A stretch of DNA of 64,000 nt from Arsukibacterium sp. UBA3155. Lineage in GTDB: Bacteria > Pseudomonadota > Gammaproteobacteria > Enterobacterales > Alteromonadaceae. Under the pieces are notes generated by a model that did no database searches, was not told the origin of the DNA, and saw only the letters and a program-made list of their open reading frames with translations. Each line of letters starts with the position of its first letter. Within the stretch, counting starts at the first letter, position 1. The DNA is taken from positions 31,277 through 95,276 of the forward strand of contig DEYP01000003.1 in NCBI GenBank assembly GCA_002364615.1. Reading direction: 5' to 3'. The position numbers and the translations under genes are program-made. Of the stretch, positions 58,250-64,000 are shown piece by piece.

Positions 58250-59458
58250 CTAGCGAATCAGGATTGTATCTGCCCAACGCACAGCTTGCTGATATACGTC
58301 GGCCAGTTTGGCAATACCACTGATTTGCTGCTCCAGGTCGATGGTGGTTTCCCAGTCACCGCGTTCGAACGCCAACGCTAATTGCAACATTTTTCCAAGC
58401 AGGCCTGACTGGCTCAGCAATGCCTGCTTAATTTCGGTTTGCAGTGGCAGCTGCTCGAGCATGACCAGTTGGGGCTGTTCGATAATTTCATGCACGTTAG
58501 AGAATAAACCGGTTAAAAACGCACTGGGGGGGTTGTTCGACAGGTGTTTTTGTTCAGCCAGTAGATCACAAAACCGCGCCCGGATTAATGCCACGGTTAG
58601 CCGGTCATCCTGTTCGCCATCTGCTAAGTTAGCCAGTGCCAGCAACGCGATAAACTTTTTCAGCTCAGGCTCGCCCATTGATACCATGGCCAGTTTTAGT
58701 GAGCTAATGGGCTGACGTGCAGCAAACTGACTGTTATTTACAAACCGCAATAATTTATAGGACAGTCCGACGTCCCGCTGACAAATACCCGCCAGCAAAT
58801 CAAAATCGAGTTCGGCTTTTGATGACTCAGCAATTAACGACAACAAATTCGCTTTGTTAGAACTAAGCTGCTTTTGCTTCATCATTTCCGGCCGGGCAAA
58901 TAAGTAGCCCTGAAACAGCACAAAGCCCATCATTTTCAGCTTTTCAAATTGCTCAGCGGTTTCTACTTTTTCAGCGAGCAGTATTAAGGGAAAATCGGCA
59001 ATTCGTCGCAAATAACGGCTAATTTGCAGCAAGTTAAACTGTAGTACGTCTATTTTCACATAAGTAATATAGGGTAGAAACTCATCCCATTTCGGGTCAA
59101 AGTCGTGGTCATCCAGCGCCAGTTTATACCCCTGGCTATGCAAATTCTGACATACCTCTAATAGCTCCGGACTTGCCGGTACCGTTTCCAGTATTTCAAT
59201 GACCGTGCTGGCCGGGTTAATAGAGGTTGGAAAACGATGCAGCAGGGTATCAGCAGAAAAATTAATAAAAGCAGGTTTGTTACCGGTAATGCTTTCAACA
59301 CCCAGCAATAAGTGATGTTGCAGTAATAACTTACTGGTTGCTTCGTCGGCATCAATATTTGGAAAGCTATTCGCTTCGCCATCCCTGAACAATAGCTCAT
59401 AGCCACATACTGATTTGTTAGCATCGAAAATAGGCTGACGGGCAATATAACCGTACAT
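58250..59458 (-). CDS. EAL-HDOD (YuxH-type) signalling protein
   Basis: 402 residues. EAL-like half (1-200): ELLFR at 21-25 (ExLxR), Asn66, Glu88, Asp116-Asp117, Lys135, Glu163 and Gln183 are all present, although loop 6 reads DDHDFD not DDFGTG. HDOD half (about 200-400) has RDVGLSYKLLRFVNNSQFAARQ. Most family members are thought inactive as phosphodiesterases, but here the metal and substrate residues are largely kept. Could degrade or sense cyclic-di-GMP and regulate motility or biofilm. Converges with the chemoreceptor gene. Confidence 0.88.
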   Translation of the reverse strand: MYGYIARQPIFDANKSVCGYELLFRDGEANSFPNIDADEATSKLLLQHHLLLGVESITGNKPAFINFSADTLLHRFPTSINPASTVIEILETVPASPELLEVCQNLHSQGYKLALDDHDFDPKWDEFLPYITYVKIDVLQFNLLQISRYLRRIADFPLILLAEKVETAEQFEKLKMMGFVLFQGYLFARPEMMKQKQLSSNKANLLSLIAESSKAELDFDLLAGICQRDVGLSYKLLRFVNNSQFAARQPISSLKLAMVSMGEPELKKFIALLALANLADGEQDDRLTVALIRARFCDLLAEQKHLSNNPPSAFLTGLFSNVHEIIEQPQLVMLEQLPLQTEIKQALLSQSGLLGKMLQLALAFERGDWETTIDLEQQISGIAKLADVYQQAVRWADTILIR

Positions 59459-59532
59459 AATTGCGCAACTCCTTTACTTCCCGTTCATCAGTATATTCGG
59501 ATTTACATCAATAACAACCAAAAGCCGCCGTG

Positions 59533-62500
59533 CTAAAAGTTATAGCTCAATCCCAGCATCACACTATCAGCTTTATTACCGCTTAAGTTGTAGCGGGTGT
59601 ATTGCAATTGCAATGTTAGCGGCTCAGTTAACGCATAGCCTGCGCTTGCACCCCAGTAAATATCAGTATCAGAATCGCTGCTGCGAATAATAGTATTGCC
59701 ATACTGACTACTGCTATTGCTCCACCAACTAAATACCCCGGCCTGCACAGCCATTGACCAGCCTTCGGCTTGCAATAAAGTAAAGCTAAAACCGCTGCGA
59801 ATACCTTTGGCCAGTAACGGACCAACATCGGATACCTGTTGATGTAACTGCTCAGCACTGAGTGTATCACCCGCAATACTCAGCGAGGCCTCACCCAAAT
59901 CAACATAATGCGCTTCTATTTCCAGCGTATTTGTCAGCGCAAAGCTAGCGCCCAGCGCAAAGCTGGTAGCGCTATCGTCGTAGCTTAACAACGTCGCTTC
60001 TGCCGGCAAACCTGCCCCGATATCACTGGCAGATTGGCTTGCTTTGCTCTGGCCGATATAGCCCTCCAGCGACAAGCCTGCTGCCTGTGCCGTTGGCGCG
60101 CTCATTAGCAACACCGAACTCATTAGCACCAGCAGCATGGCGGCTGCGCCTTTGTTAAACAGCACTGCAGCGCCTTTAACCCGGCGCAGTAACAGCACGC
60201 TTAACAACAGCAAGCTCCAGGCTCCGGTTGAGCCACCAGAGGATTTATTCACCACCGTAATCACCTCGTAGGCTTGAACCGAGACTAATACTTCACCTTG
60301 CACAATACCACCGCGGCCATCGCTAATAACAAAACTTACCGTATCACTACCGTCAAAACCAAATTTAGGCACATAACGCAACATGCCCTTAGACACTGTC
60401 ACCGTGCCTTGCTCTGCACTGGCTGCAGTAACACTGAGTGCATCACCGTCTGCATCGCTGGCATTCGCTAACACATTAATGGTTATCGGTGTGCGATCAT
60501 CTGTGTTAACAGTGGCTATCGGGCTAATTTGTGGTGCCTGATTAAAGTAAACACTAATGGCAACCTGCGCACTTGCGGTACCACCATTACCATCAGTAAC
60601 ACCATAAACCAGGGTGTCGCTGCCAATAAAGTCTGTAGCCGGGGTATAAATGATCTGAGTCATATCAGCACTGATACTCACCTGACCAAAGTTAGCCGAT
60701 ACCTGGGTAAGGCTAAGGGCGTCACTATCGGCATCACTATCGTTACTTAATACATCCAGCTCATGGCTTTGGTTCCATTGCAGGTTGAAACTATCTGCCG
60801 CCGCTTGCGGTAAGGCATTGCCTGAGAACGGCACCGCCACACCACCCGGGTCAACAATAGCGCTATTAACGATAGCATCAGCATCGTTCGGGCCACCATC
60901 TTCTATTTGCAACTGCACACACCAATGACCTTCAGTCAAACCGGCTTGCCATTCACTTGCACCCGGCGTCGGGCAATAGCCTGGTTCGCCCGCAGCACTG
61001 TATAGCTGGTTATTACTGTCAATTACAAAATTAGCCCAGCCATCAGCGGCCGTGTATTTACGATAAACCGCATTAGCAGGTACCGGTTGCGTTTGGGGTA
61101 GTACAACCCGATTACTCTGCCCAGGCTGAGGTAATTCAGTTAAAACGAAATCGAATAACCCGCCGGTATGAGTAGCCTGCATATCCGGCTCCAGCATGAT
61201 CACCACATCGGTACCAAGCTCAATGCCACCCGTGTTGGTCAGTAAGGCAGCTGCACCTTTGGATAAACACACGCCAGGCTCACTTTCAGCCAGGTAACGG
61301 TCTACCTGTGCTAAACGCTCTGGCATCGCCTGACAAGACAGGCCCGGATCCAGATAGTCCGGTATGCCGTTGCCATTGCTGTCGCCTGCACCTTCCTCAC
61401 TATCGGGGATTAGATTATTGTTGCTATCTGCATCACCCAATACCGGCAGCGTATTGACCACTAGCAGCGTAATGCGTCGCGTCGTGCTGAGTGCCGGCGT
61501 ACCATTATCCGTTGCAGTTGCGTTAAGCTCATACACTCCGGTAGCAAGCGCTGCCGGGTCAAACATGAACTGGTCCGCTGCAGTTGCGGTATTTTGCAAT
61601 GCCTCATCTGCACGCCACATCAGGCTTACATCATCTGCGCTGTTGGCATCAGATACCATTGCGCTTACGGTTACCAGCCCGCCAGCTTTACTTACCTGAA
61701 TGCTTCGCTGGCCATTTTGTGAGGCCTGCAGCGCAACTTCCGGCGCCAGATTATCCTGGTTAATGCTAATCCGGGTTTGAGCATTGCTGCCATTATTCTG
61801 GCCATCGTTTAACGTTATGATAATGTCTTTGCTGGCCACATCCGTTAGATCTGCAAACACAGTGAATTGCAGCGGCGCTGCTAAACCACTGTTAATCTGC
61901 ACGGTTCCGCTCGTCAGATCATGATCAGACATCGGTAGCGCAGAGCCACTCACGGTATAGCCTATTTCCACCGGGTACTCGGGCGCAGGACCATTTAATA
62001 ACACCTGAACCGTCACGGAACTGCCGGCACTTACCCGTTGAGATTTACTCAGCGAAATCAGCGGCTGAACGCTTACTGTTTGCGATTCAGTGCTGCTAAG
62101 GCCATTGCTATCCGTCGCAGTCCAAAACGCCTGGTGTTTACCCGGGGCAAAGAACGGCCTGCCATTTTGCAAGCTGACCGCTAAACGATTACCGTCTGCA
62201 TCTGTGGCAATGACATTACCCAAATTAACTCTGGTAAATAAACCAGTAGCGTTAACGTCGATATCCTGTGGCACAATGATTGTTGGCGCTAGCGGGTTGG
62301 TACCGGTAATATCGATTTCAACATTCGCTGACGCACTGAACTCACCATCGCTGATCCGATATTGTAAGCTGGCTGGCCCGCTGAAGTTATCGCCCGGTTT
62401 AAAACTAAGCGCATTATCAACAATCGTAACCTGGCCAACACTGCTGCTTGCTGCCGTTATACTTAGCGTATCTTCATCAGCATCCGTATCGTTAAGTAAT

Positions 62501-64000
62501 ACATCCAGTATATAGATACTATCGGACGCCATAGGCAGAGTGTAATTATCGTCATTGGCAACCGGAGCTTCGTTTACATTTATCACTTCAAGCTTAAAGG
62601 CGGGCAGGCTGGCTGATAATTCACCATCGGATACGCTAATCACAATACCGGTAGTTTCACCCACATGTTCTTTATCCGGCGTACCCGTTAAGGCACCGGT
62701 TGAGGTGCTAAACGTCGCCCAGCTTGGTTTATTGGTAATACTGAACGTCAACGTGGTATCAGGGTCGATATCCTCGGCGGTTGGCTCAAATACATAAGCC
62801 GCATCTTCGTCAATAGAAGTCGCAGGAGTGCCGCTGATGGTAGGCGCATCATTAGTGTTAGTCACGCTCAGGTTAAAGGCTGGTAATACCGCACTTAAAC
62901 TGCCATCGGATACGCTAATCACAATCGCATTGGTCACACCAACATCGCTGTTAGCCGGCGTACCGGTTAAGGCGCCAGTAGCACTGTTAAACATTGCCCA
63001 GCTTGGTTTATTGGTGATGCTAAATGTTAATGTGGTATCAGCATCCACATCGGCTGCGGTTGGTACAAAGTTGTAGGCAGCATCTTGTGCCACAGTTGTC
63101 GCTGGTAAACCGCTAATCGTTGGCGCATCGTTGGTGTTGCTTACCGTTAAGTTAAACGCCGGTAATGCTGCACTTAAACTGCCATCCGTGACACTGATCA
63201 CAATCGCATTGGTCACCCCAATATCATCATTAGTTGGGGTACCGGTTAACGCACCGGTCGTTGTGTTAAAGCTGGCCCAACTCGGTTTGCTGACAATGCT
63301 AAAGGTCAGCGTGGTATCCGCATCCACATCCGCTGCCATTGGCACAAAGCTATAAGCCGTATCCTGTGCGATAGTGGTCGCGGGTGTGCCACTAATGGTA
63401 GGGGCATCGTTAGTGTTGGTGACGCTTAAGTTAAAGGCTGATAATGCCGCACTTAAGCTGCCATCTGACACGCTAATGACAATACCGTTTGTCACGCCCA
63501 CATCACTGTTAGCCGGCGTACCGGTTAAGGCGCCAGTAGCACTGTTAAACATTGCCCAGCTTGGTTTATTGGTGATGCTAAAAGTCAGCGTGGTATCCGC
63601 ATCCACATCGGCTGCGGTGGGTACAAAGTTGTAGGCAGTGTCTTGTGCCACAGTTGTCGCTGGTGAACCGCTAATCGTCGGGGCATCGTTAATGTTAGTG
63701 ACGCTTAAGTTAAACGCTGGTAGCGCCGCACTTAAGCTGCCATCCGACACACTAATTACAACTGCATTAGTCACGCCCACATCACTGTTAGCCGGCGTGC
63801 CGCTTAAGGCGCCAGTTGCACTGTTAAACACGGCCCAACTTGGCTTGTTGACAATGCTAAAAGTCAGCGTGGTATCCGCATCCACATCGGCTGCGGTGGG
63901 TACAAAGTTATAGGCAGTGTCTTGTGCCACAGTTGTCGCTGGTAAACCGCTAATCGTCGGGGCATCGTTAATGTTGGTGACGCTTAAGTTAAACGCTGGT
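59533..64000 (-). CDS. giant Ig/cadherin-repeat protein with GlyGly-CTERM-like segment and C-terminal beta-barrel (partial)
   Basis: Open minus-strand frame from the stop at 59533 to the window edge, at least 1,488 residues; the start is outside. Order: five or six 93-residue Ig (He_PIG-like) repeats with NDAPTISG starts; a NEAPVANDD cadherin-like module; HYR/Calx-beta-like modules; a Ca-binding GDADSNNNLIPDSEEG, GDSNGNGIPDYLDPG stretch; two more tandem-95-type modules (LDVLSNDSDADSD, INVLANASDADGD); SGGSTGAW, a hydrophobic helix and Arg-Arg (60179-60240); FNKGAAA; a signal-like helix with AQA (60082-60090); and a barrel of about 182 residues ending LGLSYNF. Adhesin or scaffold with an attached outer-membrane part; may be a polyprotein. 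Architecture is read from sequence; module names are from memory. Confidence 0.82.
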   Translation of the reverse strand, partial: PAFNLSVTNINDAPTISGLPATTVAQDTAYNFVPTAADVDADTTLTFSIVNKPSWAVFNSATGALSGTPANSDVGVTNAVVISVSDGSLSAALPAFNLSVTNINDAPTISGSPATTVAQDTAYNFVPTAADVDADTTLTFSITNKPSWAMFNSATGALTGTPANSDVGVTNGIVISVSDGSLSAALSAFNLSVTNTNDAPTISGTPATTIAQDTAYSFVPMAADVDADTTLTFSIVSKPSWASFNTTTGALTGTPTNDDIGVTNAIVISVTDGSLSAALPAFNLTVSNTNDAPTISGLPATTVAQDAAYNFVPTAADVDADTTLTFSITNKPSWAMFNSATGALTGTPANSDVGVTNAIVISVSDGSLSAVLPAFNLSVTNTNDAPTISGTPATSIDEDAAYVFEPTAEDIDPDTTLTFSITNKPSWATFSTSTGALTGTPDKEHVGETTGIVISVSDGELSASLPAFKLEVINVNEAPVANDDNYTLPMASDSIYILDVLLNDTDADEDTLSITAASSSVGQVTIVDNALSFKPGDNFSGPASLQYRISDGEFSASANVEIDITGTNPLAPTIIVPQDIDVNATGLFTRVNLGNVIATDADGNRLAVSLQNGRPFFAPGKHQAFWTATDSNGLSSTESQTVSVQPLISLSKSQRVSAGSSVTVQVLLNGPAPEYPVEIGYTVSGSALPMSDHDLTSGTVQINSGLAAPLQFTVFADLTDVASKDIIITLNDGQNNGSNAQTRISINQDNLAPEVALQASQNGQRSIQVSKAGGLVTVSAMVSDANSADDVSLMWRADEALQNTATAADQFMFDPAALATGVYELNATATDNGTPALSTTRRITLLVVNTLPVLGDADSNNNLIPDSEEGAGDSNGNGIPDYLDPGLSCQAMPERLAQVDRYLAESEPGVCLSKGAAALLTNTGGIELGTDVVIMLEPDMQATHTGGLFDFVLTELPQPGQSNRVVLPQTQPVPANAVYRKYTAADGWANFVIDSNNQLYSAAGEPGYCPTPGASEWQAGLTEGHWCVQLQIEDGGPNDADAIVNSAIVDPGGVAVPFSGNALPQAAADSFNLQWNQSHELDVLSNDSDADSDALSLTQVSANFGQVSISADMTQIIYTPATDFIGSDTLVYGVTDGNGGTASAQVAISVYFNQAPQISPIATVNTDDRTPITINVLANASDADGDALSVTAASAEQGTVTVSKGMLRYVPKFGFDGSDTVSFVISDGRGGIVQGEVLVSVQAYEVITVVNKSSGGSTGAWSLLLLSVLLLRRVKGAAVLFNKGAAAMLLVLMSSVLLMSAPTAQAAGLSLEGYIGQSKASQSASDIGAGLPAEATLLSYDDSATSFALGASFALTNTLEIEAHYVDLGEASLSIAGDTLSAEQLHQQVSDVGPLLAKGIRSGFSFTLLQAEGWSMAVQAGVFSWWSNSSSQYGNTIIRSSDSDTDIYWGASAGYALTEPLTLQLQYTRYNLSGNKADSVMLGLSYNF
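60082..60240 (-). other. internal GlyGly-CTERM-like tail followed by second signal-peptide-like helix
   Basis: From 60240 downward: SGGSTGAW, a hydrophobic run LLLLSVLLL, then Arg-Arg-Val-Lys: the tripartite form of a GlyGly-CTERM (rhombosortase) signal. It is followed by AAVLFNKGAAA, a new hydrophobic helix MLLVLMSSVLLMSAPT and AQA, an ideal signal-peptidase site. An ATG at 60138 with an AAAGGCG-like ribosome site could also start a separate barrel protein. All in the same frame as the giant protein. Confidence 0.75.
62557..64000 (-). repeat. 279-base tandem repeats encoding Ig-like modules
   Basis: Repeat starts fall at about 62557, 62836, 63115, 63394, 63673 and 63952, each 279 bases (93 residues), in frame, with high DNA similarity between the four right-most units and a more diverged one at 62557. 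The array continues past the window edge, so the copy number is unknown. Confidence 0.9.

What the first reader, a model, noticed from the sequence alone, without database searches (positions are those of the whole stretch)
59533..60300. Internal GlyGly-CTERM sorting tail followed in frame by a second signal peptide and outer-membrane barrel: possible polyprotein
A GlyGly-CTERM signal is normally the last 20-25 residues of a protein. Here the tail (SGGSTGAW, hydrophobic helix, Arg-Arg) is followed, with no stop, by a short positively charged linker, a new hydrophobic helix with a clear AQA cleavage site and a complete beta-barrel ending in Phe. The topology is self-consistent: helix one out-to-in with Arg-Arg inside, helix two in-to-out, then signal peptidase release. 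Cleavage by a rhombosortase and by signal peptidase I would yield a surface repeat protein and an outer-membrane protein in 1:1 ratio, perhaps its anchor or secretion pore. Known: GlyGly-CTERM/rhombosortase and signal peptidase specificity. Inferred: the polyprotein idea. Alternatives: recent loss of a stop codon, or a separate internal start at 60138.
Basis: partly seen in the sequence, partly recalled or inferred. Interest (0 to 1): 0.8.

Follow-up and report, generated by a model that had tools for sequence, protein, structure and literature searches.

The report
Self-splitting surface protein plus barrel
In this bacterium and many of its relatives, one gene appears to encode a giant surface protein and an outer-membrane barrel joined end to end, with sorting and export signals placed so that the cell's own membrane proteases could cut them apart, which would be an unusual bacterial 'polyprotein'.

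Summary
Window ORF 59533-63999 (-) runs without a stop from a repeat protein through a GlyGly-CTERM tail (60175-60240), an Arg/Lys loop, a second signal-peptide-like helix ending AQA, and an OmpA-like barrel. I read the same in-frame order in 35 genomes: 15 of 15 same-genus genomes with a strong barrel match, and 20 others. In 12 genomes the two parts are separate adjacent genes. Fused and split forms are intermixed on the barrel tree. Thirty of 30 readable ordinary GlyGly-CTERM tails end 0-6 residues after the motif. All 35 fused genomes have a rhombosortase (common anyway: 126 of 147 relatives); in one, its gene directly follows the fused gene. Best reading: a bacterial polyprotein, cut by rhombosortase and signal peptidase I into a surface protein and a partner barrel. 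Cleavage is inferred. The tag model is weak in most fused relatives: in two searches it found the fused tail in 2 of 21 fused genomes. The barrel looks too small for a secretion pore; an anchor or receptor is likelier. An internal start at 60138 cannot be excluded in this species, but it is not conserved. Known parts, new arrangement.

The parts
60268..63999 (-). Surface passenger: He_PIG, cadherin-like, Big_9 and tandem-95 repeats (5' part lost at the contig end)
   Evidence: Pfam and NCBIfam matches; contig C16 ends at 95276, the last base of the window
60832..61170 (-). choice-of-anchor U domain
   Evidence: NF041766 47.1 bits, cut-off 32
60175..60240 (-). Internal GlyGly-CTERM: SGGSTGAW, helix 1, Arg-Arg
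   Evidence: TIGR03501 over its cut-off; helix in the AF2 model, low confidence there
60148..60186 (-). Positive loop RRVKGAAVLFNKG (predicted cytoplasmic; overlaps the end of the GlyGly-CTERM match)
   Evidence: alignment A1; 2-6 positive and 0 acidic residues in the 14 same-genus loops examined
60082..60147 (-). Second hydrophobic helix ending AQA: internal signal peptide (predicted)
   Evidence: alignment A1, hydropathy, AF2 helix 41-54
59536..60081 (-). Mature OmpA-like outer-membrane beta-barrel ending in Phe
   Evidence: PF13505; Foldseek best match OmpA 9fzd, TM-score 0.75 by target length, 0.55 by query length
60136..60138 (-). Possible internal ATG, weak ribosome site, not conserved
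59533..59535 (-). Stop codon of the joint frame

Best explanation
The gene makes one precursor that holds two exported proteins. Several full-length relatives start with a hydrophobic N-terminal segment that reads as a signal peptide, so the repeat passenger would enter the periplasm through Sec (inferred). The GlyGly-CTERM helix then stops transfer and leaves Arg-Arg in the cytoplasm (inferred from the motif). The second helix reinserts and carries the barrel part across; signal peptidase I cuts after AQA, and the barrel goes to the outer membrane by the usual barrel-assembly route (inferred). Rhombosortase cuts at the GlyGly site and the new C-terminus may receive a lipid moiety, as reported for VesB of Vibrio cholerae; the type II system would then carry the passenger to the surface (inferred by homology). 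What is left is a short helical hairpin. The fusion arose by loss of the stop between two neighbouring, sometimes overlapping genes (or such genes arose by its splitting), and it is tolerated because both tags process in series. The barrel most likely is a cognate outer-membrane partner (anchor or receptor) of the passenger, made in equal amount. Shown: the joint frame, its conservation, the split relatives, the presence of rhombosortase and of a type II secretin. Inferred: both cuts, the topology and the partnership.
For: Joint frame in 15 of 15 same-genus genomes with a strong barrel match (of 31 same-genus genomes searched) and in 20 further genomes of other genera, families or orders. Split adjacent genes in 12 genomes; in 5 of the 11 measured the start overlaps the stop by 1-4 bases or lies 1 base after it. 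Loop between the helices positive with no acidic residue. Rhombosortase over cut-off in 35 of 35 fused genomes, and starting 41 nt after the fused gene in G453. Type II secretin in the own genome, 548.8 bits. Purifying selection on every segment: pN/pS 0.23 passenger, 0.23 GlyGly tail, 0.39 loop plus helix 2, 0.16 barrel (21 pairs of 7 sequences). GlyGly-CTERM is a transferable rhombosortase tag in V. cholerae (PMC13393428, passages; PMC6219818, passages).
Against: No protein data. The papers whose passages I saw describe the tag as C-terminal, and the 2011 paper suggests that this position helps recognition (PMC3237569, passages). The tag model is weak in the fused relatives: the fused tail is matched at E 0.001 in 1 of 12 fused genomes searched (the window's own), in 1 of 9 others (G308), and 8 of 18 aligned fused rows match at E 1. 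Rhombosortase is common anyway: 126 of 147 relatives. One split genome, G058 (81% complete), shows none. An ATG at 60138 with an upstream AAAGG could start the barrel alone in this species (duplex energy -3.4), and a few other fused rows have moderate sites (L025 TTG -6.6; L009, L011 and L013 ATG -5.0). Three relatives join passenger to barrel with no helix seen, so processing is not needed in every lineage.
Confidence: 0.7

Rival explanations
1. Two proteins from overlapping translation: the passenger frame runs on into the barrel, but the barrel is made mainly from an internal start with its own signal peptide.
For: Split relatives are made this way. The window has ATG 60138 (-3.4) and L018 an ATG in the same place (-4.4); L009, L010, L011 and L013 have an ATG just after the Arg cluster (-5.0 in the three computed). 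The contrast with split genes is moderate: their best starts range from -3.4 to -11.9, and only 5 of 11 are stronger than the 5th percentile of background, -6.1.
Against: No start is conserved among 19 fused loci examined. In L017, L020, L021 and L023 the stretch after helix 1 has no ATG, GTG or TTG that would leave a signal peptide; only TTG codons inside helix 1 (-3.3 or weaker) or an ATG at the tag (-4.3 in L020, -6.5 in L023), whose product would carry both helices, remain (background median -1.9). All 28 fused rows of the tree keep the frame open through the junction, which is under purifying selection.
Confidence: 0.18
2. One uncut protein: a C-terminal barrel anchors the repeat passenger covalently, like an autotransporter or intimin-type adhesin, and the helices are vestigial.
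For: Direct passenger-barrel joins without helices are seen in L060, L067 and L075.
Against: Two hydrophobic helices with a positive loop would stop the chain in the inner membrane, and they are present in the fused rows examined. The barrel resembles OmpA; the autotransporter model matches 2 of 18 rows, best E 0.0032.
Confidence: 0.08
3. Recent stop loss or sequencing error, without function.
For: A stop is gained or lost here within one genus (G093 and G806 fused, G835 split).
Against: Assemblies of 15 genomes of the genus are all open, the junction is under purifying selection, and fused forms are spread over many families.
Confidence: 0.02

Closest known systems
GlyGly-CTERM / rhombosortase sorting (VesB of Vibrio cholerae)
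   Same: Same tripartite tag, rhombosortase and type II secretin in the genome
   Different: Tag is internal: 213 more residues follow, with a second signal peptide and a barrel
OmpA-type barrels (PF13505, PF01389)
   Same: Best solved match is OmpA; PF13505 in 18 of 18 and PF01389 in 7 of 18 rows; in G117, G045 and G308 an OmpA-like C-terminal domain follows the barrel (read by eye)
   Different: Made as the tail of a giant surface protein, with an internal instead of an N-terminal signal peptide
TIGR04219 OMP_w_GlyGly barrel family
   Same: Outer-membrane barrel whose model name mentions GlyGly
   Different: Own genome has a true member elsewhere (C21, 241.1 bits); the fused barrels match it only weakly (2 of 18, best E 0.041)
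Dedicated GlyGly-CTERM plus rhombosortase gene pairs (PMC3237569, passages)
   Same: In G453 and G432 a rhombosortase gene directly follows the GlyGly-CTERM gene
   Different: In G453 the substrate is the fused polyprotein, and the genome has a second rhombosortase elsewhere
Cytochrome b-c1 polyprotein of Bradyrhizobium (fbcH), recalled from memory; one search found no paper on it
   Same: A bacterial polyprotein with an internal signal sequence
   Different: Respiratory proteins; no sortase-type tag

Membership tests
GlyGly-CTERM proteins (TIGR03501) | Gly-rich motif, hydrophobic helix, basic cluster over the curated cut-off | tested here: met
   Window: 19.0-24.8 bits against 15.5. Many fused relatives do not reach E 0.001
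GlyGly-CTERM proteins (TIGR03501) | Tag at the extreme C-terminus | tested here: not met
   213 residues follow; 30 of 30 others read have 0-6. Hence filed as a variant, not as an ordinary member
Rhombosortase substrates | Rhombosortase (TIGR03902) in the same genome | tested here: met
   156.5 bits against 84
Rhombosortase substrates | Cleavage at the Gly-Gly site | not testable with these tools
   needs protein data
Type II secretion clients | Type II secretin in the genome | tested here: met
   TIGR02517, 548.8 bits against 351; actual dependence not testable
Signal peptidase I substrates | Positive n-region, hydrophobic core, small residues at -3 and -1 | tested here: met
   RRVKG...NKG, core 2.62 Kyte-Doolittle mean, AQA; no signal-peptide predictor was available
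OmpA-like barrels | OmpA-type fold, terminal aromatic residue | tested here: met
   ends in Phe; strand count of eight is my reading of ten DSSP segments
Type V autotransporters | C-terminal translocator barrel (12 strands, recalled) | tested here: not met
   Best matches are OmpA, autotransporter barrels rank lower; PF03797 in 2 of 18 rows, best E 0.0032
TIGR04219 barrels | Score over the curated cut-off of 105 bits | tested here: not met
   window row has no match at E 1 and 2 of 18 rows only weak ones; true member is elsewhere

The most novel reading that the evidence does not exclude
A widespread class of bacterial polyproteins in Gammaproteobacteria: one precursor with two export signals in series, in which an internal rhombosortase tag and an internal signal peptide release a lipid-capped giant adhesin and its own outer-membrane receptor in strict 1:1 stoichiometry. 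It would show that rhombosortase does not need the tag at the chain's end.
Probability: 0.4. Interest if true: 0.86.

Novelty: new variant of a known kind. Interest (0 to 1): 0.73.

Why it matters
Bacterial polyproteins are rare (recalled), and the rhombosortase papers whose passages I saw describe its tag as C-terminal. If this arrangement is processed as proposed, it gives a natural substrate that tests whether the tag must be at the chain's end, names a candidate outer-membrane partner for GlyGly-CTERM surface proteins, and offers a way to ask how these proteins stay on the surface. The pairing (fused in 35 genomes, adjacent in 12) is itself functional linkage evidence for a barrel of unknown role.

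Tried and rejected
Sequencing error or recent stop loss: rejected by 15 same-genus genomes. Secretion pore: disfavoured by the OmpA-like fold. Autotransporter: not met. RNA element at the junction: no Rfam match at gathering scores in 59000-61000. Member of TIGR04219: not met. A first scan of named genomes with one long query found nothing; a closer alignment gave 13 loci: 11 from records titled Rheinheimera (two on one R. hassiensis contig), one Arsukibacterium and one unnamed gammaproteobacterial MAG. Literature: searches showed no title, abstract start or passage about an internal GlyGly-CTERM followed by a barrel; I saw passages of five papers (PMC3237569, PMC13393428, PMC6219818, PMC11389362, and one reference-list line of PMC12802150) and only listings of the rest, so this is no proof of absence. 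Outside the class: five 'same phylum' genomes had barrel matches at E 1e-8; of these I looked at G525, G549 and G579 and saw no GlyGly junction, G630 and G655 were not read.

Ribosome-site contrast: my first four split starts (-5.9 to -11.9) looked clearly better than fused ones; with eleven the range is -3.4 to -11.9, so the contrast is only moderate.

Rows dropped before counts: the tree used 56 barrels; L012 and L018 (cut by contig ends), L081 (stop inside), L052, L141 and the loci were not in it. The terminal-tag control used 30 of the 42 non-window matches, those for which a locus was given. In one search the automatic placing of helix 1 failed for most same-genus rows and was redone with a fixed anchor (14 rows, L012 not included). 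The split pair of G068 had its true start outside the range and is not among the eleven.

Full report
What is there. On the - strand of the window, one frame is open from 63999 (the contig end) to a stop at 59533. It encodes Ig-like, cadherin-like and tandem-95 repeats, a choice-of-anchor U domain, a GlyGly-CTERM tag, a loop rich in Arg and Lys, a second hydrophobic segment that ends AQA, and a barrel of 182 residues that ends in Phe. AlphaFold2 on an 18-row alignment gives two helices and a barrel (mean pLDDT 81.9, low in parts of the junction; ten strand segments that I read as eight strands). The best solved match is OmpA (9fzd, E 2.8e-9, TM-score 0.75 by target and 0.55 by query length). 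Named relatives are Rheinheimera and Arsukibacterium. The own genome has a rhombosortase (156.5 bits) and a type II secretin (548.8 bits).

It is not an accident of this assembly. The barrel was searched in 147 genomes: 36 had a match at E 0.001. Of 31 genomes of the genus, own included, 15 have a strong match (E 1.5e-49 or better), and in all 15 the frame runs unbroken from the GlyGly tag into the barrel (in G024 and G028 a contig end cuts the gene but not the junction). Fused forms also occur in eight relatives of other genera (G093, G067, G088, G047, G142, G065, G117, G045), in eight of the 29 class-level genomes whose loci I read (G223, G277, G274, G218, G312, G421, G314, G453), in G308, found with the GlyGly model alone (381 residues after the motif, a barrel with an OmpA-like C-terminal domain by eye), and in G806, G725 and G680: 35 genomes in all.

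Ordinary tags end the protein. In 41 genomes, one search lists 42 GlyGly-CTERM matches besides the window's, in 26 genomes; I could read 30, and all end 0-6 residues after the motif. Of 17 class-level matches outside the own genome, 16 end within 33 residues and one is the fused G308. Against this stands that the model finds few fused tails: of 12 fused genomes only the window's own fused tail is listed, of 9 others only G308's, and 8 of 18 aligned rows match at E 1. The fused tags are thus atypical by score, although all 18 aligned rows keep the Gly and the Arg that one search lists as invariant.

The two parts also exist as neighbours. In G045 (C405), G083, G046, G058, G068, G301, G155, G417, G308 (C2), G509, G326 and G835 (two tandem copies) a gene ending in a GlyGly-type tag is followed on the same strand by a barrel gene: 12 genomes, two of which (G045, G308) also hold a fused gene. 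Of 11 pairs measured, five have touching ends: G045 (TGATG), G046, G301 and G835 (ATGA-type, 4 bases), and G083 (1 base apart); the rest, with the start that best fits a signal peptide, lie 14 to 195 bases apart. G093 and G806 (fused) and G835 (split) are of one genus. On the barrel tree (56 rows: 28 fused, 11 split, 3 direct, 14 without a GlyGly partner found) the fused label needs 10 changes, at least 3 on well-supported branches, and one clade of fused rows is rejected (p-AU 1.06e-5; the quick tree needs 9). The groups were named after the data had been seen and the columns are few (188), and the count cannot tell fusion from fission.

Joint translation or internal start? No start codon is conserved among 19 fused loci. 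The window has ATG 60138 with a weak site (-3.4), L018 one in the same place (-4.4), L009, L011 and L013 an ATG after the Arg cluster (-5.0), and L025 a TTG at -6.6; these could give some barrel on their own. Split genes have -3.4 to -11.9, 5 of 11 stronger than the background's 5th percentile of -6.1, so the contrast is moderate. The clearest cases are L017, L020, L021 and L023: after helix 1 they have no ATG, GTG or TTG that would leave a signal peptide; only TTG codons within helix 1 (-3.3 or weaker) or an ATG at the tag itself (-4.3 in L020, -6.5 in L023) remain, and the ATG products would carry both helices. Passenger, tag, loop plus helix 2, and barrel have pN/pS of 0.23, 0.23, 0.39 and 0.16 over 21 pairs of 7 sequences, so the junction is kept as coding sequence.

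How it would work. The loop between the helices has 2-6 positive and no acidic residues in 14 same-genus rows, and no acidic residue in the rows, which fits helix 1 out-to-in and helix 2 in-to-out. Signal peptidase I would release the barrel, rhombosortase the passenger. For VesB, rhombosortase cleaves to expose the second glycine, a glycerophosphoethanolamine-containing moiety is attached there, and the type II system carries the protein to the surface (PMC6219818, passages; see also PMC11389362, passages); the tag is transferable (PMC13393428, passages). Rhombosortase is over cut-off in all 35 fused genomes: 23 of the genus and other relatives, own included, 9 class-level and G806, G725, G680. 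Of the 12 split genomes 11 have it; G058, 81% complete, does not. In the 29 class-level genomes, 14 of 14 with a fused or split pair have it, against 9 of 15 with a direct join or no partner found. Because 126 of 147 relatives have one, co-occurrence among relatives is weak evidence. The strongest link is local: in G453 a rhombosortase gene starts 41 bases after the fused gene (the genome has a second one elsewhere); in G432 a rhombosortase overlaps the end of a GlyGly-type gene, with an unfused OmpA-like barrel gene beside it on the other strand. Adjacent dedicated pairs were described in 2011 (PMC3237569, passages).

What the barrel does. A small OmpA-like barrel is unlikely to pass a giant protein, so I do not favour a pore. 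The repeated pairing, fused or adjacent, argues for a cognate partner: an anchor, a receptor for the lipid-capped passenger, or an assembly factor. This is inference. Direct joins without a helix (L060, L067, L075) fit an anchor role but also show that processing is not universal; in L060 the upstream part looks like an OmpA-type peptidoglycan-binding domain by eye, so that passenger may be periplasmic.

Limits. No protein data exist here. The window gene itself lacks its 5' end; that the precursor has an N-terminal signal peptide rests on relatives such as L041 and L046, judged by eye.

Novelty. Each part is known; I saw no description of the serial arrangement in the listings and passages of the searches named. 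I file it as a new variant of GlyGly-CTERM sorting, because the window's tag meets the model but not its terminal position.

Noticed in passing
L041:14695-16312, L038:3376-3963, L045:2631-3942, L048:1609-3918, L152:11632-12216: Upstream of fused giant genes lie proteins of the phage-tail-collar type (PF07484 tested in L041 only; the others by likeness of their N-termini), with a sulfotransferase (L041), a GNAT acetyltransferase (L045) or a formyltransferase (L048) near by.
   Followed up: partly
L060, L067, L075 (barrel at 1501 in L060 and L067): Passengers joined directly to the same barrel family with no transmembrane helix seen between them.
   Followed up: partly
L148:4470-5105 (G432): Rhombosortase gene overlapping the end of a GlyGly-type gene, with a convergent OmpA-like barrel gene beside it.
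   Followed up: partly
L155 and L174 (G835:C1:173008-173535 and 164618-165145): Two barrels with the same score 8.4 kb apart, each after a GlyGly-type gene with the same tail: probably a recent tandem duplication.
   Followed up: no
   Followed up: no
window 64000: The contig ends inside the repeat array, so the start of the giant gene is missing from this assembly.
   Followed up: yes
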